Positions 1,251 to 57,210 of a DNA stretch of 64,000 nucleotides are shown piece after piece. Numbering within the stretch: the first letter of the stretch is position 1; every line of letters starts with the position of its first letter. The stretch is taken from the NCBI GenBank assembly GCA_034620365.1, contig JAQGEQ010000069.1, positions 47,348 to 111,347 on the forward strand, in the 5' to 3' direction. The notes beneath the pieces were generated by a model that had not been told where the DNA came from, made no database searches, and saw nothing but the letters and a program-made list of their open reading frames with translations. The position numbers were made by a program, and so were the translations under genes. The DNA is from Pegea sp. RAD2-039 (Eukaryota > Chordata > Thaliacea > Salpida > Salpidae).

Positions 1251-3585
1251 CTCTCTTTTAATTTAAATTTAATTATTTTTTATTTAAAAAAATTAAAATT
1301 TTCTATCTCGTTTACATTTCTAGCATAACAACCAACAGACTTATACATTTTTACATATTCTATTTTTTATTAAATCAAAGCTAATTTACAATTGCAGGAC
1401 AACCAATCCAAATTTTTAAAATATTACACTTGAAACCCTTGTTAGTTTAAACTTACTTCTTGATAAAAATTTGTAATTTTCTTTTAATTGTATACTTCAG
1501 TAAAACAAGTTTTATGAAACTTTATTCTAGAATATAAAAGAAATTGTTGAAAAAATTTTTCTTAATGGATGTTATTCAGCAATCAAATACTATGAAAGCT
1601 TTCTTAAACATTTTATAAATCAATTTTTGTTTACAGACTAACTTATACTTTGACTAATAGCATTAAATTTGAAAGTTGTTTATTTTCGGTAGAGATTTGT
1701 GGAAAAAATATAATGATTTGTTTGAAATTAAGTTAGTTACAATCTTAATTAAATATCAAATTTTAATTTTGTTAATCTCTGATCTAGCAATTTTTGTAAA
1801 CAGATAAAAATTTAATTAAATTTAATTTGGATTTTACTATAGAAACTAATGCAGCTTCATTATTTAGCATTTTATTATGAAATTGAATCTTTTTTTTTGA
1901 ATTTAAAGTTGTAAAGTTTTATTAATAGAAATGTTTTAAAGAAAAATCAATTGAAATTGAATTATATTTTTAAATGTTAATTTTATAAGAAGTAGTGTCA
2001 AGTATCAAAAAGTAATTTTGAATAGTTGTTTTTAAATTTTATATTGTAGTGTTAAATGTTATTACTATTATCTATACTATCATCTCATTTTAAAGTGACA
2101 AATATTTTTTTACGTTAAAATTAGAGAAATAAAACTATTAAGCTATAGTAATATAATATAGAATTAATGTAGTAAATTAGTAAATAAAATTAAGTTCTGG
2201 ATTACTAAAAACTATTTCTTCAATTGTTTTATCTGCAGTTTATTTGCAGATAAATACAGAGAAAATACATATTTAATTAGATAATTTAACAAAATATAAA
2301 CTAAAAGTGGCTGAATCAGGCTTTTCACTATCTAAATAAGACGACTTTCTAAAAATTTTATTTTACTCTAATTAATTTTTTTTTAATTATATAAAATAAA
2401 CATCAAAATACTTTTCAAACAATTAAATTAATACTCTTTTGCATAAGCTTTTTCTATTTTTGTATATATATTAATTTTTTAAAAACATAATTTTTCATAT
2501 TTTTATAATGTGCTTCAAATTTTTTTGATTCAAAATTTGAAAGAAGTTGTATCAAACGAGTTTATAAAGATTTTTTAAAGTAAAATTACTTATTTTACTG
2601 AAAATAGGGTTTTTCTATTAGAAAGCATTCTGTCACATTTTCAGTATCATCTTTGTAATAATGGAATAAGCTTTTAACCTAAATTTTTTTTCTATAATTT
2701 TTTGCAGAGAAAATATTTATTAAATGAAGTTTCGTTGAAAAGTAGTTCAACTCCAAAATTGTATCAAATATCTAATACAGTTATTATATGAGGTCTGGTT
2801 ATGTAAATGTAATTTTCATTTCATATAACTTCATTACAACCTAGAGTTTGTGGGATCAAGTTTAAACGAATTACCCAGCTTTGAGAAATTATTTTTTTCT
2901 TCATATAAAAATAATCTTTTTGTTGACAAAGAATGTTCAAATAATAATTTTGACATTAAAACTGAAACCTAAATTATTAAAATATATAAAGGGAACCAAT
3001 TTGTTATACGAACGAAATCAGTCTAAAACCATGTTAGTTTTTATTCTTAAACTGTTTATAACAATTATAGACTAGATAATCTTTGTTTACATACTCATCA
3101 AAGATATATTTTTAGATTACTAAAAACTAAGAGGTAAACCACTTTTTATGATAATAAATAATTTCAGTTGTTTAATCTATTTTCAAGATAAAGAATATAA
3201 TGTTTCGAAATAATATTAATTTTGAAATATTTTTTTATGTTTGATAGCACACTATAGTGGAAATGAAAACTTCAAATAGAATTAAAATTTTTAACAAAAG
3301 TTTATCAAATTTTTTGAAAATATTTACAGCTGATCTCTAGCAATAATTTTATGTATACTGTAAAGTATATTTACAGTTTTAGAAAATTAGAAGTTAATTA
3401 TATATTTTATTGCATATACAAAAGCTGTTTTCACTTTTTAGTGACATTTTTCAATTCATATTCACAAAATCAAAGCTGTTTCTAAAAAAATATCTTTTTT
3501 ATTATGAATAACTTAGATAGTCAAGAAAAAATCTTTATTATTAAATTCTTAATCAAAAAATAATATTATTTTCTTTTTACTCTGT

Positions 3586-3600
3586 GCGCCACCTAGCGGT
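3586..3600 (-). promoter_or_regulatory. CTCF-like GC-rich box
   Basis: On the minus strand this reads ACCGCTAGGTGGCGC, an almost pure GC island in very A+T-rich surroundings. It matches the published CTCF core consensus CCASYAGRKGGCRS except for G instead of A at the third base. Partner boxes in matching contexts are at 19,911 (plus), 32,973 (minus) and 43,402 (plus). Binding is inference. Confidence 0.5.
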
Positions 3601-4937
3601 TAGTGTATTTTGGTTACACCAACAATATTCAGAAACATAATTAGTATTTTATTGAACCACTTTATTAAATTGTACAATTTGTAGATTGGTGGATGTTTTG
3701 TACAGCAAAGCAAAATAAATTTTTATTTGTTTTTCTTATTGTTAAAAATTAATTCATAAGGCTTTTTTTGTATAAATTTTTTATACAGAGTTAAATCGTT
3801 AAAAATCAAATTTCAAATTAACTAATTAATCCAAATGCAACATAAAACCTTATTTAAAAAATAGTTTCCACAGTGAACAAAATTTCTAATGATAAGCTTG
3901 TCGCTGTTATCAATTAGGGGGTAATGATGTCTTTTAATGTCTTTCTACACTTAAATTATGTATGCTTAAAAAAACTCGACAACTTATTTTAAAAAGTTCA
4001 GTTGTTTTTTTAATTGAAAAAGTAAGAAATCTTATTATCTGTATATTTTAAGTGGAGTTAATTTTAGTAATCTCATAAGCAATTTCGATTAGAATTTTAA
4101 TCATATAAAAAAAGTAAAAGCAAAAAAATTATTTGGTTAAATAACATAATTCTATTTGTAGATTACAACAATGCTTTAGATTTATTCTAATCAATAATCA
4201 CAGAAACAATTTATCTGGCATTTTAAACGTGTAATTATTAATTTATTAATTATAAATATTAAGTATGCCGCTTAGTTTTCTATTTTAACTAAAATTCTGA
4301 GTTGAAATACTTAGTTTGCTCAAAAATAAAGTTTTTATTCATAATTATTAAATAGAATTATATTAAAAGGTGTACAACAATGAAATAAACCTCTAAGCAT
4401 AAATTTGTTGTATGTCAACTTTTGTACAGAATAAAAACTCAAGATATTCAACTTATTAAATAAATGAAGTTTTATTGAAAAGTAGTTTAACTCTAAATTT
4501 TTAAACAGCTAAAAACCTAAATACTGATTGAAATATGTTCTACATTTTGCTTATATGGCAAGCCAACAGATAATTAAGATGATTTTATTGAGTTTTTTGT
4601 TGAATATTTTCCCTTGACTTAGTATCTGTAATTACGCATAAAGTTTTCAGTTTCAATAGAATTGTTAGAATTTTGATGAAAGAATGAAACAACAACTAAA
4701 GCTAATTACATCATTAATTTGATTGAGTAACTGAAATACAAACTTTTTATATTTGTAGAAATCATTTAACTTAATTTTTATTTTTATAAAAAATTGTATT
4801 GAGTTGCTCAAAATGTAAAATGAATAAAGTTTAAAAGAGAATTTCTCCTAGCAAACGGAATTCTATAATATTGAGTAATCTTAAGAAAGATGAAAGTTGT
4901 GTCAACTATTCCGATGAATAAAACATGTTTGATAAAC

Positions 4938-4955
4938 AGACGCAAATATGCATCT
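4938..4955 (+). repeat. H1 palindrome copy
   Basis: AGACGCAAATATGCATCT has near-perfect inverted arms and is followed by TCC, as in other copies. Its inverted partner inside the large inverted repeat is at 42,284-42,301. Confidence 0.6.
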
Positions 4956-5159
4956 TCCAAATACAGGAGATTTCTATTTTGCTTGCTGCTTCACTCTTCA
5001 TTTATACACTTATATAATATCGGCATCAAATCTGATGCTTGTGGTATCGTTAATTGTTGCTCATTTTATAAATACATTTTTAATTTTATTGAAAATATTA
5101 TTGTGATAAGGATAATATTGGTTTGCTTTAGAATCAGATATCAGTAAAATAATTATCTT

Positions 5160-6270
5160 ACTTTTCTTAGCTCATATAAGCTAATTTAAAATTATTCAAA
5201 CTCTAAACTATTTGTAGTAAGCTTGTAAATGGAGATTTTATTAAGCTACAATAAAAAAGTGTAATAAAATAAATTGTTGCAAATAGAGAAATAAAAATTA
5301 AAAAATTAATAAACTTTTGTTGTTGCAATAGAAATTTCAACACTTTGGTAAAACCACAAATTTAAAATAACAATATATAAAATTAAATATTTTTAATTAT
5401 ATGATACAAAATTTCAAATAAAACTACATTTAAAGTAGTTTTTGGTTATGCCGTAAATAATTTTATTTAGTTAATTGGAAGTACTTACATGAAAGTAATA
5501 TTCTGTCATATTATAAGTATCATGTTTAAAAAAACGAAAAAAATGTTTACTTAAAGTATATATGTCATTTCTCGTGAAAAATAGAAACAGTTTATTTAAC
5601 TGATTTAATATTTAAATTTTCGTTAAAAAATTCCAAAATTAAAATTAAAAGTAGTTTAATTAAAATTAAACTAAATAACCAGTAATTATTCGTTAGTTAT
5701 TCATTATTTATTACTTTAATGCAGTAACATTTAAAATTAATATTTGTAAAAATCACTTTGAATATTTTATATATAGTTAAATGTAATTTTTAATTGATAT
5801 ATCTTGAAGTTAAATGTAGATTTATTTATAATAATTAAAAATATAAAAACTAAAAAAGATAGAAAAATATAACCTAATTGTATTTACATTATGTAAACCA
5901 AAGAATTATTTTGACTATTGTTTGGAAAAAGTTGCTTGAAAAGCTAAACGGTTAAAAATGAAAAAGAACATACAACTTGTAATAATTAGATTCTATTTTT
6001 ACTTTTCAAAAAAACTTTTCTGAAACTATTTCTAGAAATATTTTGAAGATCAAACCAACAGAATTTCTAAAACTTATAATACTCACAATTTAAAAACAAA
6101 AAAAGCACATGATTCTTGACTTAGTTTTTTAAAAACCTAAACTTGTTACAATCGCGACAAATAAGTTTCTGTTCAGGCATCAAAGTAACTTTAAATTAAA
6201 TAAAACTTCGTAACAAACTTACTTTTAATCTATTTATAATCTCAACCTACTTTTCTTTACTACAAAAATA
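5160..6270. other. gene-free, decayed repeat modules
   Basis: No coding sequence is seen. The part 5,380-5,650 matches 52.1-52.3 kb on the opposite strand and 735-860 directly. The part near 6,050-6,215 is a worn minus-strand copy of the region around the H5 hairpin. The remainder is A+T-rich sequence with no recognisable structure. Confidence 0.5.
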
Positions 6271-8450
6271 GATTTATAGTCAAATTTTCTTATCAACTTA
6301 AAAATCGATCTTTATATTTCAGCATTATCTGTCAACAAGAAGTTTATTATTGAAACTAGAAAAATTTAATCGTTTGAGCCTGATCCCACAAACACTAGAT
6401 TTTAGAAAAGTTTATAAATAATAAAAAGTACATTAAAAATTGAAACTATAAGCTTGTTAAAACCGTTTCGAAATTTGGAGTTGAATTACTTTTCAGCGAA
6501 ATTAAAATTAAGTTGAATAACTTGAGTTTCTATTCTCTACATAAATAACAAAAAAGTAATTTATTTCAAGGCTTGTAACATGTTTACTGACAACGTGATA
6601 GAATGTTTAGGAATAAAAAACTTTTATTTCAACAAAATTAGTATACTACTTATATTCTAAATAAAAAAACTAAAATTATTTAGCAAAATATATATTTTTT
6701 TGTTTTATTTTATTTAACGGAAATCAATCAGTATCAGTTCGACAAATCTCTTTTTAATAATCATAAAAGTTCAAATCAATCGACAAATATCAAGAAATTT
6801 GAACATTTTTGTTTGTAAGATGAAGAATCATATATTATTTTTTCGTTTACAGAATTGTAAACGTTTTAATTATTTAAGGTTAACAATTTAATTTAAAAAT
6901 AGTAAATTTTGTACTAATATCAACTATCAATTTATTTTGAATTATTAACATTGACATTTATATTATAGTTAATAATTTAATGAAAAATATTTTTATTTCG
7001 AAATAAGAACTTTGAGGAATAACTAAAACTTTAAATTAGATTATCATTTTCAATTGCTTATCTTACAAGAAACCAACTACTAGAGCCCTATAGTCCTTAT
7101 TCTAATGATTTGAAGATTTTAGATAAAAGCATTTAAAGTTTTTGGTAAAAAGTAACCTGAAAAAGTAAACATGAACCATTCTACAAATTATAATAATCTG
7201 TAAAATATTTTAACAGAAGACTATTGAAGGTTTAAATATTTGTTATTGCACGCACCTTACAAAAAAAACGTTATGAACCATTTTTATTTCATCTCTGAAA
7301 AACTAAAAATATTTGAAAATTTAAAATACGCTTCTACAAAGAAGATGTAAACATCAAGCAATCAAAAAATTAAGCAAAAGAAAATTACAATATTTGATAA
7401 TCAGATGCAAAAGTGCATCTTCCAAATAAATAGGTCAACGGAGAATTAGTAACTAAACGTTTTCACTTCCCCGTTAGCTTTACGGTGTTATATTATCTTC
7501 ATTCAATCTTATGCTTGTGGTATCGGTAAATTTTTCGATTGCTGTATTCAATCGATAATGTTATTGATAATATCATTTTTAGCTGAACTTCTATCTAAAC
7601 GGTGTTTTTTATTTCTTTATTCTTCTCAATGAATAATTTTGTTATTTATAATTATGGTTATATAATATTGAATTCTAATTTAAACTGAATGTTGTATAGT
7701 GTAACTAGTATTTAAAAAATTTAAAATAAATAGTACATTGGTAAGTGTGGTTATTTAAAAACTGTATTGTTTTAGAAAATGTAAACAAGTAAGAACTACG
7801 AGATAAATCTACTAAAAACAAATCAACTGTTTCCTTTTCCGCTACTTGGCGCTAGACGGTTTCTTATGAAAAAAATCTTTAAAAATATATTATTTTTTTA
7901 TAATTTAAAAATTTTTTAATATTACTTTCAGTTTACAGAAAATATATTCTAACATATTTAAATATTTTAATTTTTTAGTAATCTAGAAAAGGTTAGTAAT
8001 TCATATATTTTCCAATCATAAAAGTTATTTTTACTCTTTGTAAATTAATATATCGAAAGAAAAAATTCACAACTTTTAAAACTTTAGAAACACAATAATA
8101 TTTTTTGATATTTCATCTCATGATAGAAAAAACAGAATTGCCGAGCTGATATTTAATGAATTCGATTAAATGATAATAAAAAGCAAAATACTAGTTTTGT
8201 TGAAAGAAAAGTTTTCAATTAGTAAAAAATCTGTCATATTACCAATAACATGTTTACAAACATATTTTGCGATGAATAATAACTCAAGTTATCAAACTTA
8301 TTTATTACTTAAAGTTTTGTTGTAAAGTACATTAACTCAAAATTAAAAACTTTGCAATCCTTTACGAAAGATTGAGTTTTATTTTACTTCTCATTTCTTA
8401 TAAACGTTGTTGCAATCTGAAGTGTATGGGATCAAGTTCAAATGAAACTA
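6270..8450 (+). repeat. 2.2 kb block duplicated directly at 30.13-32.40 kb
   Basis: The block aligns end to end with 30,130-32,400 in the same orientation, with scattered differences. The stretch from about 7,153 to 7,325 is identical to about 31,013-31,185, roughly 172 bases without a difference, while the flanks differ. The left half contains a minus-strand GATCCCACAAAC element (6,373-6,397); the right half is the start of a plus-strand hairpin unit. No gene is seen. Confidence 0.75.
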
Positions 8451-8890
8451 ATTTTATAATTTTATTGATAAGCATTTTGTTGACAAATAATTTTCAAATA
8501 GAAAATTCCATTTAAAGTTGATAAGAAAATTTATTTTAAGTTTATAAGTTTACTATTATAAGTTTACTATTATACAAACCAAATTAGTTTAATTTTTCTT
8601 ATGAAGTTTTATTTATTTCAGATTTAAATTTACTTCTAATTAGAAGACTAAAATTAAAAATGATCGATCGTACTGACGATGAAAAATTAAATCAAAAGCT
8701 ATGTGACGTTTTGTTATAAAAAATGAGAGTACTGTAGGACTTAGAAATCATTTTCGTTTGATCTTCAAACTAATTTGCAATTCATACAAACTATTAAAGT
8801 AATTTATCTAGAGATTATAAATGTTCAAGATATTTCTTCTAAGCCAAGATATTCTATTTGCTAGAGAACGCAAACGATAAAAGCAAAAGT
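7390..8890 (+). repeat. hairpin repeat unit, full copy
   Basis: This contains every landmark of the reference unit in the same order: H1 palindrome 7,403-7,420, H2 hairpin 7,535-7,555, GC-rich box 7,839-7,859, H3 near 8,150, the GTGGGATCAAGTT-type element at about 8,416-8,446 (here TATGGGATCAAGTT), H5 hairpin 8,667-8,680 (arms ATCGT/ACGAT) and H6 8,857-8,874 (TTTGCTAGAGAACGCAAA). No reading frame runs through it, and no terminal inverted repeat or target-site duplication is obvious. Confidence 0.7.
7839..7859 (+). promoter_or_regulatory. CTCF-like GC-rich box of the hairpin unit
   Basis: The box reads CCGCTACTTGGCGC followed by TAGACGG. It differs from the 23,372 box at positions 7 and 8 only. 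Near-identical boxes occur at 13,459-13,479 and 31,693-31,712, and inverted at 34,866-34,885. Confidence 0.45.
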
Positions 8891-8899
8891 TAAAATTAA

Positions 8900-9950
8900 T
8901 GTTTTTATCTATTTATCTTTTTATCTAGAAACTTGTTTATATAACAGAGCAGAACAAGATTTCGCCACAAATTATTTAAATTAATTGTTTGTAAATTAAT
9001 ATATACAAGCCATATATAGACATGATCTAGTACATATTTCACCAATTACAGATTCACAATTCTAAAGATTTGTTTATACAACTATTAAACCAAATTGTTT
9101 TCTTTTTACAAAAAAATAAAAACTTGAGATTTTCAAAAAACATTTAGAATATTTTTGAAATCTTTTTAAGCACTCTTTAAAACGTTTTCAATTTTTAAAA
9201 AGTTACTTTATTTTTTTAAAACAACATTTTTCTCTTGTTTGATAATATTTTTACGATTTCAATGTTATGAAATAATTTGCAAATATTAAATAAGTTATTT
9301 TCTTGCTAAGTGATTACGCAAGAATAAGTTTTTAATTTTTATTTATTTTCCCAAGATTGAAGTAAACGCTTACAACTTGTAAAATCTATAAAATAAAAAG
9401 ACCGTTAGTTTCTCTTTCTGTTTTTAACATCAAATATAAAATAAACAGTTGAAAAAGGTTATAATAAATAATTAAATTTCATAAATTATTTTTAATAGAA
9501 GATAAATTTTTTGACTCGAATGTTTTCGAGATAATATAAAAACTTTTGATAACGATCAATCTAAGAAAATACTAAATAACTTTTTTTTAAAAGTTCTCTT
9601 TCTCTGTAAAGATTTAATCTCATTTGAATTTATAGTCGAGCATAATAATAAAAAGCATGTTAAACTTTTAAAATGATTTCAAAGTATCATACAGTTTGCA
9701 ATACTGGTAAGAAGAGAAAATGAAAGAAATTAAAAGAATATTTTTTTGAATAAAGCATTTATACAATAGCATACATACAAGATTTGATGATACCACTAAA
9801 ACAAGATTGCATACAGATAAAACCGCTTTTTGTATGGAAAAGGGCATTAATTTGTTTATCATTTTTTTTCTACAAACTTTATTTTTGAAAATGCAGTTTT
9901 GCCTTTGTTTACTAAACAAGCATTTTTTTTAAGCAATTAGGTTTTGCGCT
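8900..9950 (+). repeat. repeat block, inverted at 39.93-40.77 kb
   Basis: This matches 39,930-40,770 on the opposite strand; for example 9,301-9,330 pairs with 40,371-40,400, and 9,620-9,715 with 40,001-40,080. The first 250 bases also match 15,235-15,470 directly. An 83-codon minus-strand frame at 9,668-9,919 lies inside this repeat. It is not kept as a gene, because its only support is the open frame itself. Confidence 0.6.
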
Positions 9951-11570
9951 TTGTTGATATTGGTTGATGTTTACAAATTCCGTGTACATGTGAGTTTTCC
10001 AACTAAATTTTCTTTTAATTTTCAATCATCATTTTTAACTATTAAGTAGAAATATTTTGCATTCAAGATAGATTTTTTTTTGTGTTGAAATTCATTAGAT
10101 TTACTTTTCAGAAAATTAGTATAATTTTTATAGTTTATGTTTATAGTTTAATTGAATATAATTAAATTAGACATTAGTAATTTCAATACCATAATTTGAA
10201 AAAGGCTTTTTGTATTGGGGAGAGAATAAGTTGTTTAAATTTCTACAATTTTTGATCATGATTAAAAATTTTTTTCATCTAATATAGTTATATTTTGTGA
10301 ACCAAATTTAAAGGTAATATAAACATTCTAAGAATAAATAAAGCTTTGTAAAAACTTTGTTTTAAGATGGTTTTAACCCTGTACTTTATATAAACTTTTA
10401 AGCTAAAACTTTTCTTTGTCATACTTCCTCAATTTTAAAAATCAAATAAAAATAAAAATTTAAATAAAAAATACGGAAAAAAAATTAATCAATTCGTTCA
10501 AACTTGATCCCACAATCTGTAGATTGTAACATAGTTGATATAACCGAAAAGTTCTGGAAGTCTTTCGACCATTGTGCAGATCGAATGTATGACCTAATTT
10601 GAAGTTGAAACACTTTCAACAGAAATCGATTAAGTAAATAACAAGACTACCTTGAGTTTCAATTCTCTGCAAGAAGCAACATAAAAATGATTTATGTTGA
10701 AAATTTATTATTTTAACAGAAATATGTAACTGATAAATTGACAGTATGTTTACAAATAGAACAAAAAGTTTTAGTGAATTTAGTATTTTTAAAATAGAAA
10801 TTTTAAACACATTTTTCAGTCTGAATAATTAAAAAACTTTGTATTTCTAAAGTTCAGCAGAAATGAGTTTTAAAAAATAACTTTACAATACAATAATTCA
10901 AAGCTTTCATTTTCCGCTACTGGTCGCTAGATGAGATCTTTTATTAAACAGTTAAGCAAACAATTAAGAAGTTGTTTCTTTTATTATAATTTTTATATCT
11001 TTCTCTAATAGTTTTAGTTCAAAAAAAATCTTTATTAAATTTAAAGTAGTTTTGTTGACCCGATATTTAATGATTTCGATTGAATGATATTAAAAAGTAA
11101 TAAGGAAATAGAAATGTTGCTGCTTAAATTATTTCATCTGAGATATAAGTAGAAATACTAATTGTGCTAGATAAAAGTTTTGATATTTGAAAACATTCTG
11201 TTATATTATTATTCTCTTATTTGTTAGATGCAATTTTAGAAGATTGTTCTCAAGACTAATTTTGAAAATAGTTTAACGACATAAGTTTATTTTTTGTGAA
11301 TTAAGTTCCATTTCTGGTCTTTTTAAAAAAGGAGATATTTGTATGAAAACGCTTTTTCTAACTGAAGCATATACAATTTAATGAAAACAAGACAAACAGA
11401 TTACTACAAGTAAAATAATTCAAATTTTCAACAAAAGGACATAACTTTAAATCTTCTGAAAACTTGTAGAGAATATCTGATTAACTTTATCAAAAAAAAG
11501 TTGCTAAATATTGTTGACGTCGGAAAAAGTGTTCAACTATTGAGAACCATTAAGAACCTCTTTTGCAAAG
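9950..11570. repeat. repeat mosaic: pieces matching 20.55, 36.4 and other loci
   Basis: No gene is seen. The part 10,200-10,450 matches 20,550-20,760 on the opposite strand. The part 10,470-10,850 matches 36,400-36,750 directly and carries a minus-strand GATCCCACAA element (10,499-10,526). A GC-rich box TTCCGCTACTGGTCGCTAG lies at 10,912-10,930, followed by a worn H3 hairpin near 11,070. A 64-codon minus-strand frame at 10,616-10,810 is repeat sequence. Confidence 0.55.
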
Positions 11571-12340: not shown

Positions 12341-12449
12341 TCGTCTAAACTAATTGCTTTGATCTACTTTAAAAAAAATTACTGTAAAAAAATACTGCTT
12401 TATTAAAAGTAAAAAAAGTTAACATGTATTGGTATTACATGCAGTAATT

Positions 12450-15470: not shown

Positions 15471-15489
15471 TTAATGAAATCTTTTGTTA

Positions 15490-16455: not shown

Positions 16456-16476
16456 GAGCGCGCTCTAGCGGAAAAC
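16456..16476 (-). promoter_or_regulatory. CTCF-like box, GAGCGCGC variant
   Basis: On the minus strand this reads TTTTCCGCTAGAGCGCGCTC. It belongs to a second box variant, together with 54,717-54,737 (CCGCTAGAGTGCGC), 3,243-3,263 and 43,741-43,758. The CCGCTAG half is shared with the other boxes. Confidence 0.35.
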
Positions 16477-16619
16477 AAAGCTAAAGAGATGAAAAGAACT
16501 TCATACAAATTCTTATTTCGTGTTTCTGCATATCCTTAGCATTGATTTCTACAAAAGTGAAGAAGTCTTGTAGGAATTGGAGTTAAAACAATATTCCTTT
16601 ATTGATAACAATTGTTTAG

Positions 16620-46030: not shown

Positions 46031-47280
46031 TTATTTTAGCTTTTTATTTTCAAAAGTAAGTTATTACAAGCTTTGCATAGAAAAGTAGCAAATTAATATC
46101 CTATAAACTTTTCTAATATTATTGTGCTACTTATTTCCACAAACTAAACTTTAAAATAGAAGTAAAACAGAAGAAAATTACGATCTTATTGATCTTTGTT
46201 GCCTTACTGGTATCTAGCGATACGATTTTTATTTAGTCAGTTACTATTAAATTACAAAACTTGTTTATATTATTCAACTAAACCATATTTTCTAAACGAC
46301 AGTAATAAAGTCAAATTAATTTTGTTCAGCCGAAGTAATATCTATTATTAAATAACAGTTTTGTGTAAATTATTATATTCAATTAAAAAGAAAATAACAA
46401 TTTAATTTTTAAATTTAATTTTAATTCATGCTAATTAAAATCATTATTAATTTAAAATTTTCATAATAATTGAAAGAAAATGATTAATTTTAATATATAC
46501 TAACCTAAATTCCTAATTGTAAAAGTTGTTTCTTAGCTAATTCTTTAAAATTTTATAATAAATTTAACAAATATAACCAATTTTTTGATAGTTCACTGTT
46601 GATAAACTTATTTTAAAACTTAGCATTGCTTAATACTATGATTTCTACCAACTGCTTAAACTCACTGATTTCTATAGAGAGTTTTAAGATCATATATATA
46701 TCTAAAATATTTAAACAACTAAATTTTCTGTATCAGCTTTAACCTTATCAATTTGTTTGATATTTTGTTTCGCTTTTATTTAAGTAAGGATAAAATAATT
46801 TAAACTGACAAGGAAAAACTGTCACTTGAAGAAAAATGTTAATAATTTTGTTTATTTTGATTACTTTCCTGTTTCATTAAAAAACAAATTTGCATTTTTT
46901 TAGATACTTGTAATCGTATTTTTCTTTAAAGAATTTGCCATTGTAAAATTAATTTAATTATTTTTTACACGATTGCTTTGAAAACTTTCATTACTTAAGC
47001 ATGAAATTTTATTTCTAAGATTTTCTTTTTACAATTTTATTTTTATGTTAGATTTATAATTTTAGTTTTACGGCTTAAAATTATTAATTTGAATAATCTT
47101 CAAAATAATTTTAACTTTTTACTGACTAAAATTATATTTTTTTACTCGCTGTGACACTTTATATTTTACAAATTTTACAAATCTTTAGTAAACATAAACA
47201 GTTAATATAGATGAAAAACGTTTTGTAAAATCAATCTAAATCTATTAAAATTCTTATGTAAACTAATTCGATTAAAAAAA
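46030..47280. other. A+T-rich stretch without recognisable features
   Basis: I see no coding sequence and no copy of the hairpin unit. A decayed GC-rich box may lie near 46,190-46,230 (TCGCTAGATACC on the minus strand). Confidence 0.3.
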
Positions 47281-48100
47281 GTTAAAGTCTCGAATGCTTG
47301 AATGAAATACTAAAAATAACTGAGCTATAATTTAAATTGAAATTATTACAGAAAAAATACTAAATTATTTAAAATTCTAAATATGACTAAATTATTTACG
47401 ATTGAAATGTCGACGTTCAAACAAAAACAATTTACTTTATTTTTAACAACACTTTTATAAAAAGCTATTTATATTATAAAAGTTATTATGGCATTGTTAA
47501 GTGAAAACAAATAAGATTACGTACTTCTTTAAAGTAGCATGATGACATCAACACAAAGAAAATAGAAAAAATTTGGAAATATGTAAAACAAGCAGGGGGC
47601 TCTGTTCCGGTTGCAAATGAACACATTTTACTTACAAAGAAAATTCAAAATATACAAACAGGTAAAGGGCCATTGAGTCTTGTAAAATGACACCAATCAT
47701 AAGAGATGCAAAACTAGGAACTCGAAGACATAATGAGATCTGATAGACAATTAAAAATGTTTTAATTAATTTAAACTTTAAGTCTTTAATTTAGACTTTA
47801 ATAAACAACAGTTGGCGCAAAAATAAAAGAAAAAGTTTAAGGTATTCTTTCATATCATTGAATGATGCAGAATTTTTCGTCAAATGCAACTGACAGTGTC
47901 AGTTTTCAAATTTGTCAATTAACAAGGCGATTACCAAAAAGGATAATTTTGATATCGTACAAAATTAAATCTTTTTTATAACAATATTTTTGCCTTATGT
48001 TTGTGAGTTCAACTAAAGCACCTTTTTAATACTTTTTACGCAAATGTTCAACTATAAATAAGTTTAAAACATCTTAGTAGAGGAACGTTTTTTCTTTGAA
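47280..48100 (+). repeat. direct repeat, second copy at 49.02-49.68 kb
   Basis: Offset is about 1,740 bases. Shared runs include ACGTACTTCTTTAAAGTA (47,519 and 49,259) and the TGCAACTGACAGTRTCAGTTTTCAAA stretch near 47,885 and 49,458. The first copy carries about 150 extra bases (47,580-47,760) that look coding. Confidence 0.55.
47562..47690 (+). pseudogene. coding-like fragment, unidentified
   Basis: An open frame of 42 codons with residue use unlike the A+T noise around it, including KQAGGSVPVANEHILL. It ends in TGA, but a good donor (CAG followed by GTAAAG) lies at about 47,659, so it could also be an exon. No ATG and no acceptor pair are clear. It lies in extra sequence present in only one of two direct repeats. 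I do not recognise the protein; a transposon or gene fragment is possible. Confidence 0.3.
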
Positions 48101-48236
48101 ATTCAATAATAAATAATAATGACAAGGATAATGATTAGTAATTACTTTTCTCATTAGTTTTTAAAAAACCAGAATTCTAATTTGTTGCTTAATTCTAAAT
48201 TAATTATATATTCTTAATTATTAATTCTAAATCTTG

Positions 48237-48353
48237 CTATAAAGTGCAGATTTTAGCAGGCAAAATATTCAATTTCAAGCGTTGTGTATGCAGTCGGTTA
48301 GATTCTCTTACAGTCAGATGAGGAGCAATTTGTAAGAAAATTTGTAAGAGAAA
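48237..48353 (-). pseudogene. coding-like fragment, unidentified
   Basis: A minus-strand open stretch of 38 codons, including APHLTVRESNRLHTQRLKLN, then TAG. This part has more G+C and more CpG than its neighbours. Other frames over the same bases are also partly open, so strand and frame are uncertain. No family is recognised. Confidence 0.25.
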
Positions 48354-49679
48354 CTTTTAAATAAATAGAATCCTACTTTTTTAAACAAAAAGTTCTTTAG
48401 TCCTATAAAATAGTACGTAATATTTCAGGATTGAAAAAAAAATTTATTTTAACTTTTTTGCCTTAACTTAGTTTTCAAATTTATCGTCTACAAAATCTTT
48501 AAAAATTGCATGGGGAAACTTGTTAAAGACATTTATGACTTACTTGTCTACATTCAGTTTACTAAATCAAATTTACTGTTTGTAAATAAGTTACTCTACT
48601 CTAGATAGCTTGCTTATACTTTTAAATCATGCAGTTTAAACATAAAAAGAAATTATTTCATTGGAACTAAAAGTATTTAAAAGGATAAAATTTATAAAGA
48701 ACTTTTCAAAACTGTAGTTGGAATTATTCTATTGTTACATACAAAAGCTGATCATGTTCTCATCTAACTGAAACTAATGGTTTTTATATTTCAAAAACTG
48801 TATAAGCTGTTGAAACAGATTAATTTAATTTATTTAAAAAAATAAATTCATTATAAACTGACATCGTATTATGGTTTTCTAAATGAATAAAAATGTTTTT
48901 AAAATAAATTGTATAACCTTTTATGGTGAACAAAAAAAAACTTCTATTTCTACATGAATACACGCTCTTCTTCTTTTAATTTAAAAAGTCAAATAATTTA
49001 CTTTAGTAGCATTAAGATTAAAAACCTGCAGTTGTATAAACTTGGTAAGTTCAAAATGTAAATTATAATTGAAATAGAATTAAATTTGTTACAGAAACAA
49101 TACTGCATTAAAAAAGTCAAAATACAAAAAAATCTTATTATTTGATACGTCGTCTTTTAAACAAAAACGAATGAATTTAATTTCAACAATACTGTTATAA
49201 ACAGATTGTTTATCATAACTGTTATCTTGGTAGGGTTAATTAAAAACAAATAAGAATACGTACTTCTTTAAAGTAAAATGATTACATCAACATAACTAAA
49301 ACAAATAAAATTTGGAAATTTTTAAATGAAACATTCTACATATTTTTTTAAATACGAAAACGTCATTTAAAAGTTTAAAATTGACACAACATATTAAGGA
49401 AATAAACAAGTCCACAGCGTTCTTTATATCGTTAAACAACGGAAATCTTTTTGTTAAATGCAACTGACAGTATCAGTTTTCAAAATTATGAAGATTGGAA
49501 TAATTTAAAAAAAAAATTAAATGATAATTAGATGACAAGTTAAAGGCCTTAAATGACAAGTTACTTTCCTTGTGTTTGTGAGCTCATTTCAAACACTTTT
49601 TTAATGCTTTTCACAGAAAGGTTAGATTATAAACACGATTAAAACATCTTAACAGATGAATATTTCTTCTATGAAAACA

Positions 49680-50640
49680 CATGTTTACATTATACGTTTA
49701 AATAAAAACTTTGAAAACAATAAAAAAATTATTGAAACTTTCTACTTTAACCAAATTGCTTTAGATATATTATTGCTTTAAAATAAGATCCGATATTGGC
49801 AGATTACCTATGAAGGCCAACTACAAATACTCAAAAGAAATGATTTCAAATCTTTTTAATTTTATGCTGAGATAAATTTGTTATTGATTACTATAAGTCT
49901 AATCCATAAAAATGACGTCATCTTATAGATTAACATGTTTTTTTGAATTTTACAAGAAATAGTTTATACCGTGTCAGCTTTCACTGTTTATTGTTCTGTT
50001 ACTAACAGTTTTTTAAAGTTCAGATGTTTATATTTTAAATCTTTAAGCTTAATAAATCTTCATCTACGATCGTTATAGTAATAGTAAATAATTTACACTC
50101 TAAAATGAATTTTGTATAGCAAAAATAAACAATAAATACTATTTTTAAAAATAAAACACCTTTAAATATAATTTGGATGATGTTTTTCATTTTTTTATAT
50201 AGTTTTATATATTTTGTCCAAGATAATAAATTTTGGAAAAAGTTTATATCATAACATTTAAAATAATAATCTTAACCTAAAATAGCCTAATAAAATTTGT
50301 TTTTCTACTGTAGATTAAAAAAGGAGTAAAAATTAAAAAATCCTAATTTTTTTGTGTTAAAATTATTTGCTAATTTAAAATAATATTTTTAAAAAATTTT
50401 TCATTGTTAAAAACTTATAAGAAAATTTTAAGATTATTATTTATGAAATAAAGATTTCCATTTTATATTTATTCTTAGCAAAGTAATTTTGATAAATTTG
50501 AAAATTAAACTTCTAAATTCACTTTGCTCATATTCTTATTCTAGTTTGTTTTATAAAATTTGATTTGATTTAGAATTGATTTTATTCTACTTTTAGAGTA
50601 GTTTTGTTCTTTCTAAAAAAATTCTGAATTTTGATTTTTT
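49680..50640. other. A+T-rich stretch, nothing recognised
   Basis: No coding frame, palindrome of the repeat family or GC-rich box was found. Confidence 0.3.
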
Positions 50641-51250
50641 TCTGTCATTCACAGATACAATTAATTAATGAAATCAAAGACTGTTGTTGTGAATAATAAT
50701 GAAGTTTTGGCTTGATAAAATTACACTTTCAAATAACTAAAGTTAAAGATTATTAATAAATGAAACAGAATCTAGCAAAAGTTAATTTACCATTTACAGA
50801 CTACCATGCTTTTAAATACTTACATATTTGGAAGTTATAATCGACACGTAGCCGACTTCAAATTAAGTTTTGTAGAATCATATAATTAAAAGAAAATTGG
50901 AATTACTGTTGAACAAATTGCTTAATAAAAGGTATATTTATTCTAGTGTTTGTGGGTTAAACACTGATTTATCACCGTAAGGAGAAAAGCACTAAACCAG
51001 GATTCAAATTATTTTTGTTTAGGTTAAAAAAACAAAAAAATAACTTTTTCTCTATGTATTGTTTATATAAAAATTATCCCAAACTAAAAAGTGTTAAATT
51101 TTATATTAGTTTTGTCAAAAACTCGTACAAATCTCCACAGTTTTTAAAAAACAAATAACTCCTATAGAACTAATAAGCTGATAAATATAAAAATAATCAA
51201 AAAGTTTGTTTTTGTAATCTTATAACTAAAAGAAATTCACTGAATTATTG
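50640..51250 (+). repeat. direct repeat, second copy at 53.60-54.19 kb
   Basis: Long near-identical runs occur (for example AATGAAGTTTTGGCTTGATA at 50,698 and 53,648, and GTTAAACACTGATTTATCAC at 50,956 and 53,912). The centre holds TCGACACGTAGCCGA (50,841-50,855), a worn form of the perfect palindrome TCGACATTTAGTCGA in the other copy (53,800-53,814). Confidence 0.7.
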
Positions 51251-51899
51251 AATCTAATTAAAATCAAAAATACTGAGAATAAATTGATCAAAGATACAGT
51301 AGTAGTTAGTTAATTTATTATTTAATAATAGAAGTTCTACTAAAAATATTCTTTCAGAAAAAACAAAATCGGAAATAAAAACTTAAAATTCGTTCAAAAA
51401 CAAAGTTTCTAAAAATAAGATTTATATTTCGATAATTTTATAACAATTATTATTCGGGGTAAACGTTAATAGATCTTTGTTGAAATGTTCCACTTGAGTG
51501 CACACCAAAATTGACTTTTTAGATATATGTTTCAATTTATTCTTTCTATCTTAATATATTTTTTTTTATCTAAGTGACATTTTTTTTCTAAGTAAAATGG
51601 TATTTTTAAAATTTTTTTCAGCGTTAAAAAGTAATTTGAAAATTTTAGGGTTATTATTTATAAAATAAATTTGTAAAAATGATTAAAGTCTGTTGTCTGT
51701 GGTGCTACGAGTCTAACCAGTTAAAAGTTTTTAAACTAATTAAAAAACTAATAAATAAAATTAAATTAAAAATGATTATTAAACAATTATTAAACATTTT
51801 TTAACTTATAAATATTTTAATAAATATACAAATAATTGATATATATAGTTTTATTTCAACCTTGGCAAACAGAGCATTATTTATAAACAAAAATTACCA

Positions 51900-52470
51900 T
51901 TAAAATTTTAATTTGATCCCACAAACTCTAGATTACCACAAAGTTATAAAGATTCAAAAGTAAAGTAAATTTTACCATATCTACAAAATGTCTTTTTTAA
52001 AACTTTTTAGATAATCGAATTTGAATTTTGGAGTTGGAATACTTTTTCAACGAAACTTTTATTTATAAAAAAAGTTGAGGAACTGAGTTAAGTCACTTTG
52101 AGTTACTTTTTATACAAAAAATGAAGTAAGAATAAATTTGATGAGAAATTTGTTTCATTTATTTAAAACTTTACTGATAATGTGATATAGTGTTTGAAAA
52201 ACTTTCTAACTTTCAATAAATTGAATAAAATTATTTACGGCATCACTAAAAAATGGGTTTAAATGCAGTTTCATCTAAAATTTAATTTAACATAAATAAA
52301 AATATACAATCTTTAAAATTATAACTTTTATGAACATTTTAATTAATAATTTTTAACAGAAAATATATAAAAATGTGTGTTAAAGTAGTTATAAGAGAAC
52401 ATAATAGTATTAAATTGTTTAAACTAATATTATATTAATCATAAATTGGAAGATGCACATTTGCATCTGT
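51900..52470 (-). repeat. short minus-strand hairpin unit
   Basis: Read on the minus strand: H1 at 52,451-52,468 (AGATGCACATTTGCATCT on plus), a middle module matching 5.4 kb inverted, and the conserved element at 51,913-51,935. It lacks the CTCF-like box. It is the rightmost unit with an intact H1. Confidence 0.6.
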
Positions 52471-52772
52471 TGATCAAACAAGTATTTTTCCTAGAAAGCA
52501 ATAATAAATTTTTACATTTCTTGAATAAATATCGTAATTTCAAATTTATGAATTTTATCAAAGTATTTTGAAATTTAAATTAAAGTCAGATTAAATAAAC
52601 ATTTATTTTTGGTTACATAGCAACTAATCAGGAACAAATTTATTTGAATTATCTGAACTAACAAAATTTAGAATTCGAGAACTTAGTATTACTTTCACTT
52701 TTTATGATTTTTCGAATTATATTCATTGTACACTAGTCAAACCCTTTTTACTAATCAATTTGTTTTCAACTC

Positions 52773-52778
52773 TTTATT
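52773..52778 (-). terminator. AATAAA signal overlapping a stop codon
   Basis: The TAA stop at 52,774-52,776 is inside the AATAAA hexamer. This supports the exon call, because the same arrangement is seen at 61,392-61,398. Confidence 0.4.
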
Positions 52779-52893
52779 TTTTTTTTGGATTGAACTGACT
52801 GATTGTGGTTCGCTCTTTACATTCATTACAGCTTTTTGTAATCGGGCGGACTTCAGTTACCTTGTAGGCCACTGGTAAGTCGCTTGTGATAAG
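52774..52893 (-). CDS. possible terminal exon, unidentified protein
   Basis: A 39-codon frame reads into TAA, including YKVTEVRPITKSCNECKERT and ending in three lysines. An acceptor-like CACAAG precedes residue SDLP at about 52,882. The segment has several CpGs and clearly more G+C than its surroundings, and it contains a Cys-x2-Cys pair. The stop overlaps AATAAA, exactly as in the kelch gene. Upstream exons on the minus strand were not found with confidence; 53,130-53,200 is open but unconvincing. It may be a gene end, or a retrocopy, since the lysine codons form a run of A. I do not recognise the protein. Confidence 0.4.
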   Translation of the reverse strand, partial: LITSDLPVAYKVTEVRPITKSCNECKERTTISQFNPKKK

Positions 52894-52899
52894 TTACAA

Positions 52900-53600
52900 G
52901 TGACTTTGCTAGTTTCTGAGAAGCAAATAAACTGAATCATCAAAACCAAATGTTTAGAACATTTAATAATAGTAAGAATAGTTCTACTTAAGAATAGTAT
53001 TACTTAAAATATGTTGATTGGGAAAATATATGATAATAATTTTGAAAAAAGGTAGAAAAACTTAATATATTTATTTAAATAAAATTTTATTATTACTCTG
53101 ATTTAATATTTGCTTCTTATGTTTGCACTTAGAAAACAGGAAACTAGTTTAGAACCAAGTTTGATTATGATGAAGTTCATTTGAAGTAACGACGTTTCTC
53201 TCTAATGAAATTTAAAGATTAGGTGATGATGTCAAAAGCGCAAAAATTATAAACAAATTTAAGTAGAAAAATATACCCAAAAAGTTATAAGCTTACTCAG
53301 CATCAACAAAACAAAATACGACTTGAATTTTTACAAAATATTTGAAAAAATGATTAAATGGTTTAACTATAATAAAACAATCTTTCACCAAGACACGTAG
53401 AAAAACTTTCAGTAAAAGTTTAAAAATCTCAAATTTATTTAACATATTTTACAATATTAAACAACTTGCTTAATTTTATTGTTATACAGTTAGAATGCTA
53501 GGAGTTTTTAAAATATAGCTTCACTAATTAAATGTGGATAAAAATAAAGGTTAATATTTTCGGTAATCACAATAATAAGTAAAATATATTAAAGACAATG
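52900..53600. other. no confident feature
   Basis: A minus-strand open stretch around 53,130-53,200 follows an acceptor-like TTCATTAG but gives conflicting frames. No repeat-unit landmarks are present. Confidence 0.25.
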
Positions 53601-54190
53601 TTTTATTCACAGATACATTTAATTGATTAAATCAAATAATTTTGCTGTGGATAATAATGAAGTTTTGGCTTGATAGAATTACACTTTCAAATCACTAAAG
53701 TAAAAGATTATTAAAAAACGAAACAGAATCTAGCAAAAGTTAATTTACGAATTACAGACTACCATGATTAAAAATACTTTAATATTAGTAAAGGTTACAT
53801 CGACATTTAGTCGACTTCAAATTAAATTTTTCGAAAAAATTGTTTGCAAGACAATTAGATTTAGCGCTAAAAATTGCTTAATAAAAAGTATTTTTATTCT
53901 AGTGTTTGTGGGTTAAACACTGATTTATCACCGTAAAGAGAAAAGCACCAAATCAGGATTCAAATTATTTTTGTTTAGGTTAAAAAAACATAAAAAATTC
54001 TTTCTCTATGTTTTGCTTTTATAATGATTATCCCAAACTAAAAAGTGTTAAATCTTATATTAGTTTTGTCAAAAACTCGTACAAATCTCCGAATAATTTA
54101 AAAATCAAATAACAGTTTTAGAACTAAAAAGCCGATAATTATAGAGACAATCAAAAAGTTTTATTTTCTTAATCTTATAACTAAAAGAAC
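53600..54190 (+). repeat. direct copy of 50.64-51.25 kb
   Basis: This copy has the intact palindrome TCGACATTTAGTCGA at 53,800-53,814. The two copies are about 3 kb apart and flank the possible terminal exon at 52.8 kb. Confidence 0.7.
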
Positions 54191-54716
54191 TTCACTGAAC
54201 TATTGATCTATTTAAAATGATAAACAATAAAATTAATGTTTATCATCTTTTGCAAATACAAAAACTTGTATATTAATAGCAAAGTAACTTTCAAATTATG
54301 GATCTAAAATTGCTCAAATGTTTTCCACGCAATAATTAAATTTGATTTCAAATAAACTGTAAAAACTGTATATTTAAGTTATCTATTTCTTCGTTCAATT
54401 TTAAATCTGATTGTCATTAAAAATATAAGAATTTTTATAAGTATACTATTTATCTAACGAGAATATCAAATGAAATTCAACAAAAAAACTATTTTGCATG
54501 CAACAAATTTGTATTAAATATTTGAAATGATGATTAAAAATGAAAATCAATTTAAGTGGGAAGATTTACTTTTACAAGTAGTTTTTAAGCATCAAGCAAT
54601 CTAAAGAAAACTCAAAATCTTATTTCCTCTAATGAAAAATACTTGTTAGGTAAACACTCACAAATAAGTCAAACAGTTTGAAGTTTTGAAATAAACATTG
54701 TTTCATTTTTATATTT

Positions 54717-54737
54717 GATAGCGCACTCTAGCGGAAA
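54717..54737 (-). promoter_or_regulatory. CTCF-like box, GAGTGCGC variant
   Basis: On the minus strand TTTCCGCTAGAGTGCGCTAT. It lies about 100 bases before the repeat block 54.83-55.35 kb. Confidence 0.35.
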
Positions 54738-54829
54738 TAAAAGCTACAAAGATAAAATGAGAATTTAACAAAATTTGATTTAGTGTCTTTAGAGAATCTT
54801 ACTTTTGAAGTTTAACAAGAATTTTTTAA

Positions 54830-55350
54830 ATATGCAGAATAGATATGAATTATTTTATAATATCCTACGAAGTTATTAAAAAGTTAAAACTGTTATTGTA
54901 AATCTTTTAGAAAAATGTAGAACATCGCTTAACTGTAAACTATAAAGTCTAACTTTACAAAATAAAAGATACTAAAGAAAACTTCACAAACTGATATAGT
55001 TGTGTTTTAATGTCAAAAAAAGTAAACAACTTAAGTGAAATCATAAGAACATAGTGTATAAAGTTCAAAACACAGAAATATTTATTAGATTGAAAATTCT
55101 GTATGTCAAAATACTAACAGAGGTTTTCTGAATACACAATTGAGCATTAGATTTTATTTGTTAGTCTTTTATTTTTCATAGTTTTTAATCCAAAAACTCA
55201 CATCGCTCTAATATTTAGTTTATAAACATCTTTATCAAAAGATAAAAAATCAAATTTCCTTTTTAACATCAAATTAAAAGTAATTTTAAAACTGACGTAA
55301 TACAAATTTTAAAACACTTTTCTTATTATCTAGTTACAATCATATAATCT
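54830..55350 (+). repeat. direct copy of 20.88-21.45 kb
   Basis: See the partner block. The copies are alike for about 500 bases and then diverge. Confidence 0.65.
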
Positions 55351-57210
55351 TATTTTGAATGAAAATAAAGGTATTTTTACAATATTTGTAGACTTTTTAA
55401 ATTTTTTAAAATTGATTTTTATTCGTAGTTAGTTATAATTTAAAACTTTTCAAAATAATAATAAAAGTCTAAGCAAATTGGGGAAAACAAAATACAAAAT
55501 ATAATTTCAATAGAATACATTACAAGCTCTCAGCTTTATTTTCAATGTTAAGAAATTGAAAAATTTTTCAATATTATTTTTCTGCTTAATCACTAAGAGA
55601 GACAGTCACCTATTTAATTTTTGTAAATCAACATCTAATGTTAACTTTGTATAAATTTTATTACAAACAAAAAGTATTGTTTATAAGAGAAATAAATCAT
55701 TTTTAAATAGTTAAAAAATTTGAAAATTTGCTATATTAAGGATTTAAAAATATATATTCTAAAAGTTTTCAAAAAATCTTTTATATTTCAATTTTTATAA
55801 TAAAAACGAGCAGTTAAATGACTACTTTGTTTCTTATTTAATTAAAACAAACCTTTACGTTTTTCATTGGATATTTAAAACAAATAGATACTACTAACTT
55901 ATTTAAAAAATAATATCAAACAATTTAATATAATTTGAGATATATAAAACATTCAAACTGATATTTACTTATATAATGTTTAACTATTATTGCATATTAA
56001 TGAAAACTATAAATCTCTGAAAATACTCAATTAGATTTTGTTAAAAACTCATTTTATATTTGTAGTCTTCATTTCCGTTAGAGTAGGCTTTCAAATATAA
56101 AAACAAAACGATGTTCAACTTTTGAAAAGCTTTCAAAGCGTCAAACTGTTTGAACTAATCCCGAAAAGAATTAAAATGACTAAAATAGAAAAAATTAAAA
56201 CTGAACTACTTTGTACTTAAATTCAAAATGAATTTGAAAAAATTGAAAAATATAAAACAGTTAGTTGTTTAGTCAAATAAGATATTGTTAAGCCTAGCCA
56301 TTAATTTGATAATCAAGTGCTTATTGACATCAACAATCATCATCAGTCTACAAATTATATTATAAATTAAACTTGCTAAAAAAATTTAGAAGTTGCTAGA
56401 TACAATTCAAAAAACAAGTTCCGTTTTTTTGGAAGGATATTGATATATTTATTAATCGTAATTAGAATGTGAAAAATGAATATCTAGTTTATAACTTCTA
56501 ATTATGAAAATTATGTATTTACTACAATAACAAATATCAAACCATCTATTATTCCTTCATTAATTTAGTTATAGATTTGTAAAATTTGTAATAATTTAGT
56601 TTATGCTTAATGTTTTAGTTAATTAGTATTACTTGGGAGACTAAAAAATTAAAAGGTTAGAAATTGAAAAGTTTCCAAATAATTTTCTACTGCATTAAAG
56701 TATTTACAGCATTGAAAGTAGGTTTTATGAAATGATTACTAATTAATTCAATTTTAGCGATATCAAAAAGAAATAAAAATAAAGAACATTTTACCTTAAA
56801 TTCATTTTCAGTTGAAGTTTAATTGCAAATACTCTTTTTGCTGAAAGGAAAGTTTTCTATTTGTAAAATTTTTGTCACATTATTAGTAACATGTTTAAAA
56901 ACAAGAAAACAAAATTTTGACATCAATTTTTTTTACCTCAGTTTTTTTACAAAATACAAACTAAATTTACTTTTAAATAAAATTTCATTGAAAAGTTGTT
57001 CAACTCCAAAAATAGCTACCGTGAGAACATTAAAAGATAGGATTTTGTCAAATTTGTCATTATTTATAAATTTTTTTTAATCTAGAATCTGTGGGGTCAA
57101 GTTTAAACGAGATAATTTTTGTACTTTTAGATAAAAAAATTTGTTTGTAAGTAATCTCATTTTTTTCAAGTTTGAATTGAATCTTTGTATATTAATATTT
57201 GATAATTCAA
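55350..57210. other. gene-free, with one inverted copy of 36.8-37.2 kb
   Basis: The part 56,080-56,420 matches 36,850-37,150 on the opposite strand (AACTGTTTGAACTAATCC is a good anchor), and includes a worn box at 56,074-56,095. A plus-strand H4 and conserved element (CTGTGGGGTCAAGTTTAAAC) lies at 56,990-57,110. An 85-codon frame at 56,823-57,080 crosses H4 and is repeat sequence. Confidence 0.45.

What the first reader, a model, noticed from the sequence alone, without database searches (positions are those of the whole stretch)
3243..56095. CTCF-like boxes carried by the repeats throughout gene-free DNA
About 18 GC-rich boxes stand out in the A+T-rich mosaic. Coordinates: 3,243; 3,586; 7,839; 10,912; 13,459; 16,456; 19,911; 23,372; 24,743; 31,693; 32,973; 34,866; 36,807; 39,251; 43,402; 43,741; 54,717; 56,074. 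The best read CCGCTAGATGGCGC or CCGCTAGGTGGCGC, 13 of 14 bases of the CTCF core CCASYAGRKGGCRS. Spread of CTCF sites by repeats is known in mammals; here one box per repeat block would make a 50-kb field of oriented sites.
Basis: partly seen in the sequence, partly recalled or inferred. Interest (0 to 1): 0.8.

Follow-up and report, generated by a model that had tools for sequence, protein, structure and literature searches.

The report
Repeat-borne CTCF-type boxes, AT-rich DNA
In an unnamed small-genome animal, a very A+T-rich stretch built of old repeats carries many short GC-rich boxes, about a third of which look like binding sites for the genome-organising protein CTCF, and the animal has a CTCF gene in which the last three DNA-binding fingers were not found.

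Summary
The boxes are real and above chance: 10 matches within 2 mismatches of the CTCF core against 0.07 expected. They are not one thing. Of the 18 listed, 6 are CTCF-type (CCGCTAGRTGGCGC, one of them decayed), 7 are word A (CCGCTACTTGGCGCTA or kin) and 5 word C (CCGCTAGAGTGCGCTA or kin); A and C change fixed letters of the core. They sit in old repeats. Twelve contigs (1.95 Mb of 105.7 Mb), picked by word A, hold 54 of the 88 exact CTCF-type words, 85 times the density elsewhere, and every listed copy of families B and D. The 34 outside copies: 29 read, flanks unrelated, with C/T at -3 and purine at -1, positions not searched for. The genome has a CTCF gene colinear with human ZF1-8, 17 of 20 contact residues of core-reading ZF3-7 identical, ZF9-11 not found. 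So CTCF binding of the 5-6 CTCF-type boxes is likely. Not supported: 18 CTCF sites, or an oriented field. Box conservation inside repeats is modest, depends on the flank compared, and is clearest for the non-CTCF word A. No binding data; organism not identified.

The parts
3586..3599 (-). CTCF-type box, family B: CCGCTAGGTGGCGC (0 mismatches to genome core)
   Evidence: family B copies
19911..19924 (+). CTCF-type box, family B: CCGCTAGGTGGGGC (1 mismatch, position 12)
23372..23385 (+). CTCF-type box, family D: CCGCTAGATGGCGC (0 mismatches); 30 family places in the genome, this one included
32973..32986 (-). Decayed CTCF-type box, family B subfamily: CCGCTAGGTAACGC (2 mismatches, positions 10 and 11)
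39251..39264 (-). CTCF-type box, CCGCTAGGTGGCGT (1 mismatch, position 14); repeat shared with L017, L041, L055
43402..43415 (+). CTCF-type box, family B: CCGCTGGGTGGCGC (1 mismatch, position 6)
7839..7859 (+). Word A box CCGCTACTTGGCGCTAGACGG
10912..10933 (+). Word A-like box, CCGCTACTGGTCGCTAGATG
13459..13479 (+). Word A box CCGCTACTTGGCGCTAGACGG
24743..24764 (+). Word A box with a one-base insert, CCGCTACTTGTGCGCTAGACAG
31693..31713 (+). Word A box CCGCTACTTGGCGCTAGACGG
34866..34886 (-). Word A box, CCGTTACTTGGCGCTAGACGA
36807..36822 (+). Word A-like box, ACGCTACTTGGCGCA
3243..3264 (-). Word C-like box, decayed: CCACTATAGTGTGCTATC
16456..16473 (-). Word C-like box CCGCTAGAGCGCGCTC
43741..43762 (+). 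Word C-like box CCACTATAGTGCGCTATC (partner of 3,243 in an inverted copy, 89% alike)
54717..54738 (-). Word C box CCGCTAGAGTGCGCTATC
56074..56095 (+). Word C-like box, decayed: CCGTTAGAGTAGGCTTTC
1..60000 (.). A+T-rich (20-22% GC) mosaic of old repeats; 69% covered by window self-matches at E<=1e-8
61396..63842 (-). BTB-kelch (KLHL-like) gene, exons on the minus strand; no self-match in the window, so not part of the repeat field

Best explanation
The window is part of a ~2-Mb A+T-rich compartment of this animal genome made of old, multiply copied segments. Several repeat families each carry a GC-rich box at a fixed place. The family B, family D and 39,251 boxes are CTCF-type sites: they carry the core that this genome's CTCF, which keeps the core-reading fingers ZF3-7 but apparently lacks ZF9-11, should read, and the same word stands at dozens of places in the rest of the genome. 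Copying of the segments has multiplied the sites. Word A and word C boxes share the outer halves (CCGCTA....GCGCTA) but change the centre; they are more likely sites for something else, or CTCF-site derivatives no longer read by CTCF. Shown: the words, families, copy numbers of the listed copies, their place on 12 contigs, and the CTCF gene sequence. Inferred: the splicing, that CTCF binds the CTCF-type boxes, and any effect on chromatin.
For: Genome word count 459 within 1 mismatch against 7 for the reversed control. 88 exact copies: 54 on 12 contigs (1.948 Mb) and 34 in the other 103.8 Mb, i.e. 27.7 against 0.33 per Mb; the 12 contigs were picked by another word, A. 29 of the 34 outside copies were read (2 dropped as duplicates, 3 not fetched): highest pairwise flank identity 52.5%, mean 29%; outside the searched 14 bases, -3 is C or T in 25 of 29 (C in 17, P 5e-7), -1 purine in 23 of 29, +14 T in 19 of 29. 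CTCF gene on C127: spliced ZF1-8 aligns colinearly with human CTCF 264-496 at E 1e-105, CTCF chains being the best 7 PDB hits; a control zinc-finger ORF hits ZNF568 in its best 3, then CTCF at E 1e-61. Contact positions identical: ZF3 4/4, ZF4 4/4, ZF5 2/4, ZF6 3/4, ZF7 4/4. Published: ZF3-7 read the core, ZF9-11 the upstream motif, many sites have TGG or CGG next to the core (PMC12885311, passages).
Against: No binding, accessibility or contact data. Words were pattern-ascertained, so core invariance is built in. In flank-found copies the box is not clearly better kept than the left flank in families B (40 copies read) and D (20 of 30 read): G/C changes per column B 1.36 versus left 1.83 and right 4.62, D 0.60 versus 0.74 and 1.87; P against left alone 0.28 and 0.39; over all columns, not G/C only, P against both flanks is 0.17 (B), 0.21 (D) and 0.02 (A). 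Only 14 of 40 family B copies keep the full core, 19 of 30 of family D. 12 of the 18 boxes are not CTCF-type. Exact sites outside are sparse (0.33 per Mb). ZF8 keeps 1 of 4 contact residues. Families B and D read TAA and TAT before the core, short of the full outside preference.
Confidence: 0.68

Rival explanations
1. The boxes are passengers: parts of the ancestral repeat sequence that were once promoter or CTCF sites and are now decaying with the repeats, with no present function in this compartment.
For: Family B and D boxes are not better kept than their left flank, and over all columns the box is not significantly slower than both flanks; decayed members are common (the full word in 14 of 40 copies and 12 variant words in the rest; window 32,973, 3,243, 56,074); strand order random.
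Against: G/C columns of the boxes change less than G/C columns of both flanks together (D P 0.04, B P 0.004, A 0 of 20,000 draws), in DNA whose composition pushes G/C to A/T.
Confidence: 0.4
2. Some or all boxes (words A and C above all) are targets of other C2H2 zinc-finger proteins of the large clusters of this genome, acting on repeats as KRAB-type or FiNZ zinc-finger proteins do.
For: 544 zinc-finger matches to the CTCF query, many in clusters on C254, C255, C60 and some on the repeat contigs C261 and C267; exact words A and C were found only on A+T-rich repeat contigs; word A is the best conserved box. ZNF-repeat coevolution across animals is published (PMC10547256, abstract).
Against: Words A and C share the outer halves with the CTCF core, which suggests descent from it. 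No ZNF recognition code was computed.
Confidence: 0.3
3. Chance GC islands: a mosaic of repeats with a few GC-rich words that resemble the CTCF core.
For: Words A and C need only the GC-rich frame to resemble the core.
Against: 10 against 0.07 expected in the window, 459 against 7 in the genome, unrelated flanks in the outside sites read. The window count is inflated by repeat copies, the outside sites are not.
Confidence: 0.02

Closest known systems
Repeat-driven spread of CTCF sites in mammals (Schmidt et al. 2012, PMC3368268, abstract read)
   Same: CTCF-type cores multiplied by copying of repeats.
   Different: Here old segmental repeats on A+T-rich contigs, not dispersed retroelements as there; no binding shown; a non-vertebrate genome of 105.7 Mb.
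CTCF of other animals with a shortened finger array (Trichinella spiralis, ten fingers, ZF11 missing; PMC2749850, passages read)
   Same: Ortholog with loss at the C-terminal end of the array, core fingers kept.
   Different: Here ZF9, ZF10 and ZF11 are all not found; the ZF region is split into several short exons, whereas in Trichinella it lies on one large exon.
CTCF motifs in the compact annelid genome of Dimorphilus gyrociliatus (PMC7854359, passages read)
   Same: Single CTCF motifs, no clear direction between neighbours, compact invertebrate genome.
   Different: There mostly in promoters; here the densest sites lie in repeats of a gene-poor compartment.
Drosophila CTCF sites (as described in PMC12885311, passages)
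   Same: Core only, no upstream motif reported.
   Different: Drosophila ZF9-11 are described as less conserved than ZF3-7, not as absent.

Membership tests
CTCF binding site | Match to core CCASYAGRKGGCRS | tested here: met
   For the CTCF-type set only: 3,586 and 23,372 miss position 3; 19,911 misses 3 and 12; 39,251 misses 3 and 14; 43,402 misses 3 and 6; the decayed 32,973 misses 3, 10 and 11. Word A (misses 3, 7, 8 or more) and word C (10 with others; three boxes still within 2 mismatches) are not counted as members
CTCF binding site | Motif preference beyond the core (C/T three bases upstream, purine next to the core) | tested here: met
   Met in 29 sites outside the compartment (25 of 29 and 23 of 29); window repeats not scored formally, families B and D read TAA and TAT before the core
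CTCF binding site | CTCF gene with core-reading ZF3-7 in the species | tested here: met
   C127 gene, 17 of 20 contact residues identical
CTCF binding site | Occupancy by CTCF | not testable with these tools
   needs CUT&RUN, ChIP-seq or DAP-seq
CTCF binding site | Core bases kept better than surroundings | tested here: inconclusive
   G/C columns better than both flanks pooled, not better than the left flank; all columns not significant, families B and D
CTCF ortholog (gene on C127) | Colinear ZF array, best match CTCF | tested here: met
   phmmer E 1e-105 to human CTCF 264-496; control ZNF ORF prefers ZNF568. No tree was built
CTCF ortholog (gene on C127) | Eleven fingers including ZF9-11 | tested here: not met
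   After ZF8 the reading goes on as an acidic tail to a stop; three frames read by eye to 1.8 kb past the stop show no further finger, nor does a pattern scan of open segments of 30 aa or more on that strand of the 9.9-kb locus (that scan also missed the ZF5/6 exon, so it is not exhaustive). No RNA evidence; the genome-wide search scored only 150 of 719 candidates
Oriented CTCF array / TAD boundary | Runs of sites on one strand | tested here: not met
   23 of 42 neighbours same strand, 22.3 expected, P 0.47

The most novel reading that the evidence does not exclude
A ~2-Mb compartment (possibly one chromosome or arm) of a bilaterian whose CTCF has only ZF1-8 has been filled with copies of segments that each carry a CTCF-type site or one of two derived words in the same CCGCTA....GCGCTA frame, the derived words being kept by their own zinc-finger proteins: a natural system in which CTCF sites and rival zinc-finger sites diverge side by side in repeats.
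Probability: 0.15. Interest if true: 0.68.

Novelty: new variant of a known kind. Interest (0 to 1): 0.45.

Why it matters
Repeat-driven spread of CTCF sites is documented for mammals; a clean invertebrate case, with a CTCF that seems to have lost the fingers for the upstream motif, would let one ask what ZF9-11 are needed for and whether site-dense, gene-poor DNA forms boundaries at all. The outside sites (core plus a flanking preference) already give a usable motif for any assay.

Tried and rejected
Words A and C as plain CTCF sites: not accepted, on core positions. Oriented field: rejected. Known RNA family or tRNA in the window: no Rfam match at gathering score, no ARAGORN match (bacterial code). 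Arthropod origin: no Chitin_bind_4 match (none of that search's control genomes rang either, so it is suggestive only). Xenoturbella bocki as the organism: its 43% GC (PMC11521371, passages) does not fit the 31% of the CTCF locus or the 34% of 35 held loci (not a random sample). Mitochondrial COX1 for placing the species: none found. Small-subunit rRNA search: no answer twice. Paper searches for a short-array CTCF listed none beyond Trichinella. The Heger 2012 paper on CTCF across animals is not held.
Full report
Setting. The window lies at G000:C104:47348-111347 of an assembly of 105.7 Mb in 387 contigs. It is 20-22% GC except its last 4 kb, 28.5%, where a BTB-kelch gene lies on the minus strand. 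69% of the first 60 kb matches another part of the window. Held loci with more than 28% GC average 34% (35 loci, chosen around boxes and genes, so not a random sample).

Observation. The 18 boxes exist. Ten matches within two mismatches of the CTCF core stand against 0.07 expected from 100 shuffles. By comparison with the core CCGCTAGRTGGCGC the 18 fall into three sets: CTCF-type (3,586; 19,911; 23,372; 39,251; 43,402, and the decayed 32,973), word A and kin (7,839; 10,912; 13,459; 24,743; 31,693; 34,866; 36,807) and word C and kin (3,243; 16,456; 43,741; 54,717; 56,074). The better members share the frame CCGCTA....GCGC(TA); A changes core positions 7 and 8, C position 10. With the box masked, 17 of 18 have repeat relatives in the window, in held loci or in the genome; 16,456 has one match that includes the box. 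None of the relatives found lay in held main-genome loci.

Genome-wide. CCGCTAGRTGGCGC occurs 459 times within one mismatch, against 7 for the reversed pattern. All 47 exact copies of word A lie on twelve contigs (C64, C98, C104, C109, C136, C261, C267, C273, C274, C275, C286, C287; 1.948 Mb), which I took as the definition of the compartment; the 20 word A loci read there are 20.6-23.4% GC. Of 88 exact copies of the CTCF-type word 54 lie on these contigs and 34 elsewhere: 27.7 against 0.33 per Mb. All 21 exact copies of word C, the 40 listed copies of family B (40 of 97 candidates were scored), the 30 of family D and the 40 listed copies of family A (40 of 81 candidates scored) are on the same contigs. 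Among one-mismatch hits some lie outside: for word A five (four read CCGCTAGTTGGCGCTA, i.e. nearer CTCF), for word C six. So the window belongs to a distinct repeat compartment. The tool states that counts of repeats are lower bounds.

Outside the compartment the word is not a copy of one repeat. I read 29 of the 34 exact outside sites (two more, L027 and L030, were dropped as duplicates of L026 and L029; three were not fetched). Flanks of 40 bases on each side are at most 52.5% alike, mean 29%. Positions not used in the search are biased: C or T at -3 in 25 of 29 (C in 17; P 5e-7 against the background of these loci), purine at -1 in 23 of 29, T at +14 in 19 of 29. A 2026 paper notes TGG or CGG next to the core of many vertebrate sites (PMC12885311, passages); the G at -2 is not seen here (3 of 29). 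200 flank columns were looked at, so only the -3 signal survives a strict correction.

CTCF gene. A query with human CTCF fingers (recalled from memory) was swamped by large zinc-finger clusters. A second query with fingers that have unusual linkers gave two adjacent exons on C127. Reading 9.9 kb there shows short exons for eight fingers followed by an acidic tail and a stop. The spliced product (my reading of the splice sites) aligns without large gaps with human CTCF 264-496, E 1e-105, ending just after ZF8; another zinc-finger ORF of this genome has ZNF568 as its best three hits and CTCF fourth. Counting from human ZF1 (numbering recalled), contact positions -1, 2, 3, 6 are identical in 4, 4, 2, 3 and 4 of 4 for ZF3 to ZF7, and 1 of 4 for ZF8. 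ZF9-11 were not found in three frames read by eye to 1.8 kb past the stop. Published work assigns ZF3-7 to the core and ZF9-11 to the upstream motif, and reports no upstream motif at Drosophila sites. Trichinella CTCF lacks ZF11 (PMC2749850, passages).

Conservation inside repeats. Exact-match samples cannot test this, so copies were sought by flanks alone. Family B, found by its left flank (40 copies, all read): 14 keep the full core; changes per G/C column on a tree from the flanks are 1.36 in the box, 1.83 left (the query side, hence biased low), 4.62 right. Word A (11 copies not fetched for that word): 0.57 in the box, 1.27 left, 2.21 right, P 0.007 against left alone; by coordinates 26 of 40 flank-found copies carry word A within one mismatch (21 exact); of the 14 that do not, the three held ones (in L034, L025, L048) have one inserted base. 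For G/C columns against both flanks pooled P is 0.04 (D), 0.004 (B) and 0 of 20,000 draws (A); for all columns 0.21, 0.17 and 0.02. Thus some constraint is possible, but for the CTCF-type families the left flank is about equally well kept, and the best kept box is not CTCF-type.

Orientation. On the compartment contigs 53 exact sites give 42 neighbouring pairs on a contig, 23 on the same strand, 22.3 expected (the single site on C98 has no neighbour). An oriented field is not supported.

Mechanism. Most likely the species' CTCF binds the CTCF-type boxes by ZF3-7 and the copying of segments has multiplied such sites in gene-poor DNA; whether they act as anchors is unknown. Words A and C may be sites of other zinc-finger proteins, of which this genome has large clusters, in keeping with ZNF-repeat coevolution (PMC10547256, abstract), or relics. 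Repeat-driven spread of CTCF sites is known in mammals (PMC3368268, abstract); a compact annelid has CTCF motifs without clear direction (PMC7854359, passages). My searches in the held library for a short-array CTCF or CTCF motifs in invertebrate repeats listed nothing equal to this; that is no proof of absence from print.

Limits. No expression, binding or contact data. 

Noticed in passing
L062 introns; L001, L004, L021 and other loci outside the repeat contigs: The palindrome TGACGTCA is hugely over-represented in held main-genome loci: 83 in 97 kb against about 1 expected from dinucleotides; in the repeat compartment 6 in 134 kb against 0.5. The loci were chosen around boxes and CTCF, not at random.
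   Followed up: partly
[quoted passage not shown] some also on repeat contigs C261 and C267, C274 and C275.
   Followed up: no
window 61396-63842 (-): BTB-kelch gene at the edge of the gene-free field, in higher-GC sequence.
   Followed up: no
window 6361-6436, 10485-10560, 21497-21572, 21840-21915, 28365-28440, 30217-30292, 36394-36469, 44260-44335, 51894-51969: A second conserved short word in the repeats, about TTGATCCCACAAACnCTAGATT, in 9 copies, also among the top words of the compartment.
   Followed up: no
window 4875-5147 and 42212-42415; 32144-32404, 34073-34306, 41856-42059: Repeated short open frames (MNKTCLINRRKYASSK; AILYExLSFILLFISYKRC) that may be decayed coding remnants in the repeats.
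   Followed up: no
L070, L077, L079; window 31693 and 32973: Word A and a family B box (with AA at positions 10-11) recur about 1.3 kb apart in opposite orientation, so they are parts of one larger unit.
   Followed up: partly
L048:1752-2276: Open frame that resembles the C-terminal end of a non-LTR retrotransposon protein by eye; no Pfam match.
   Followed up: no
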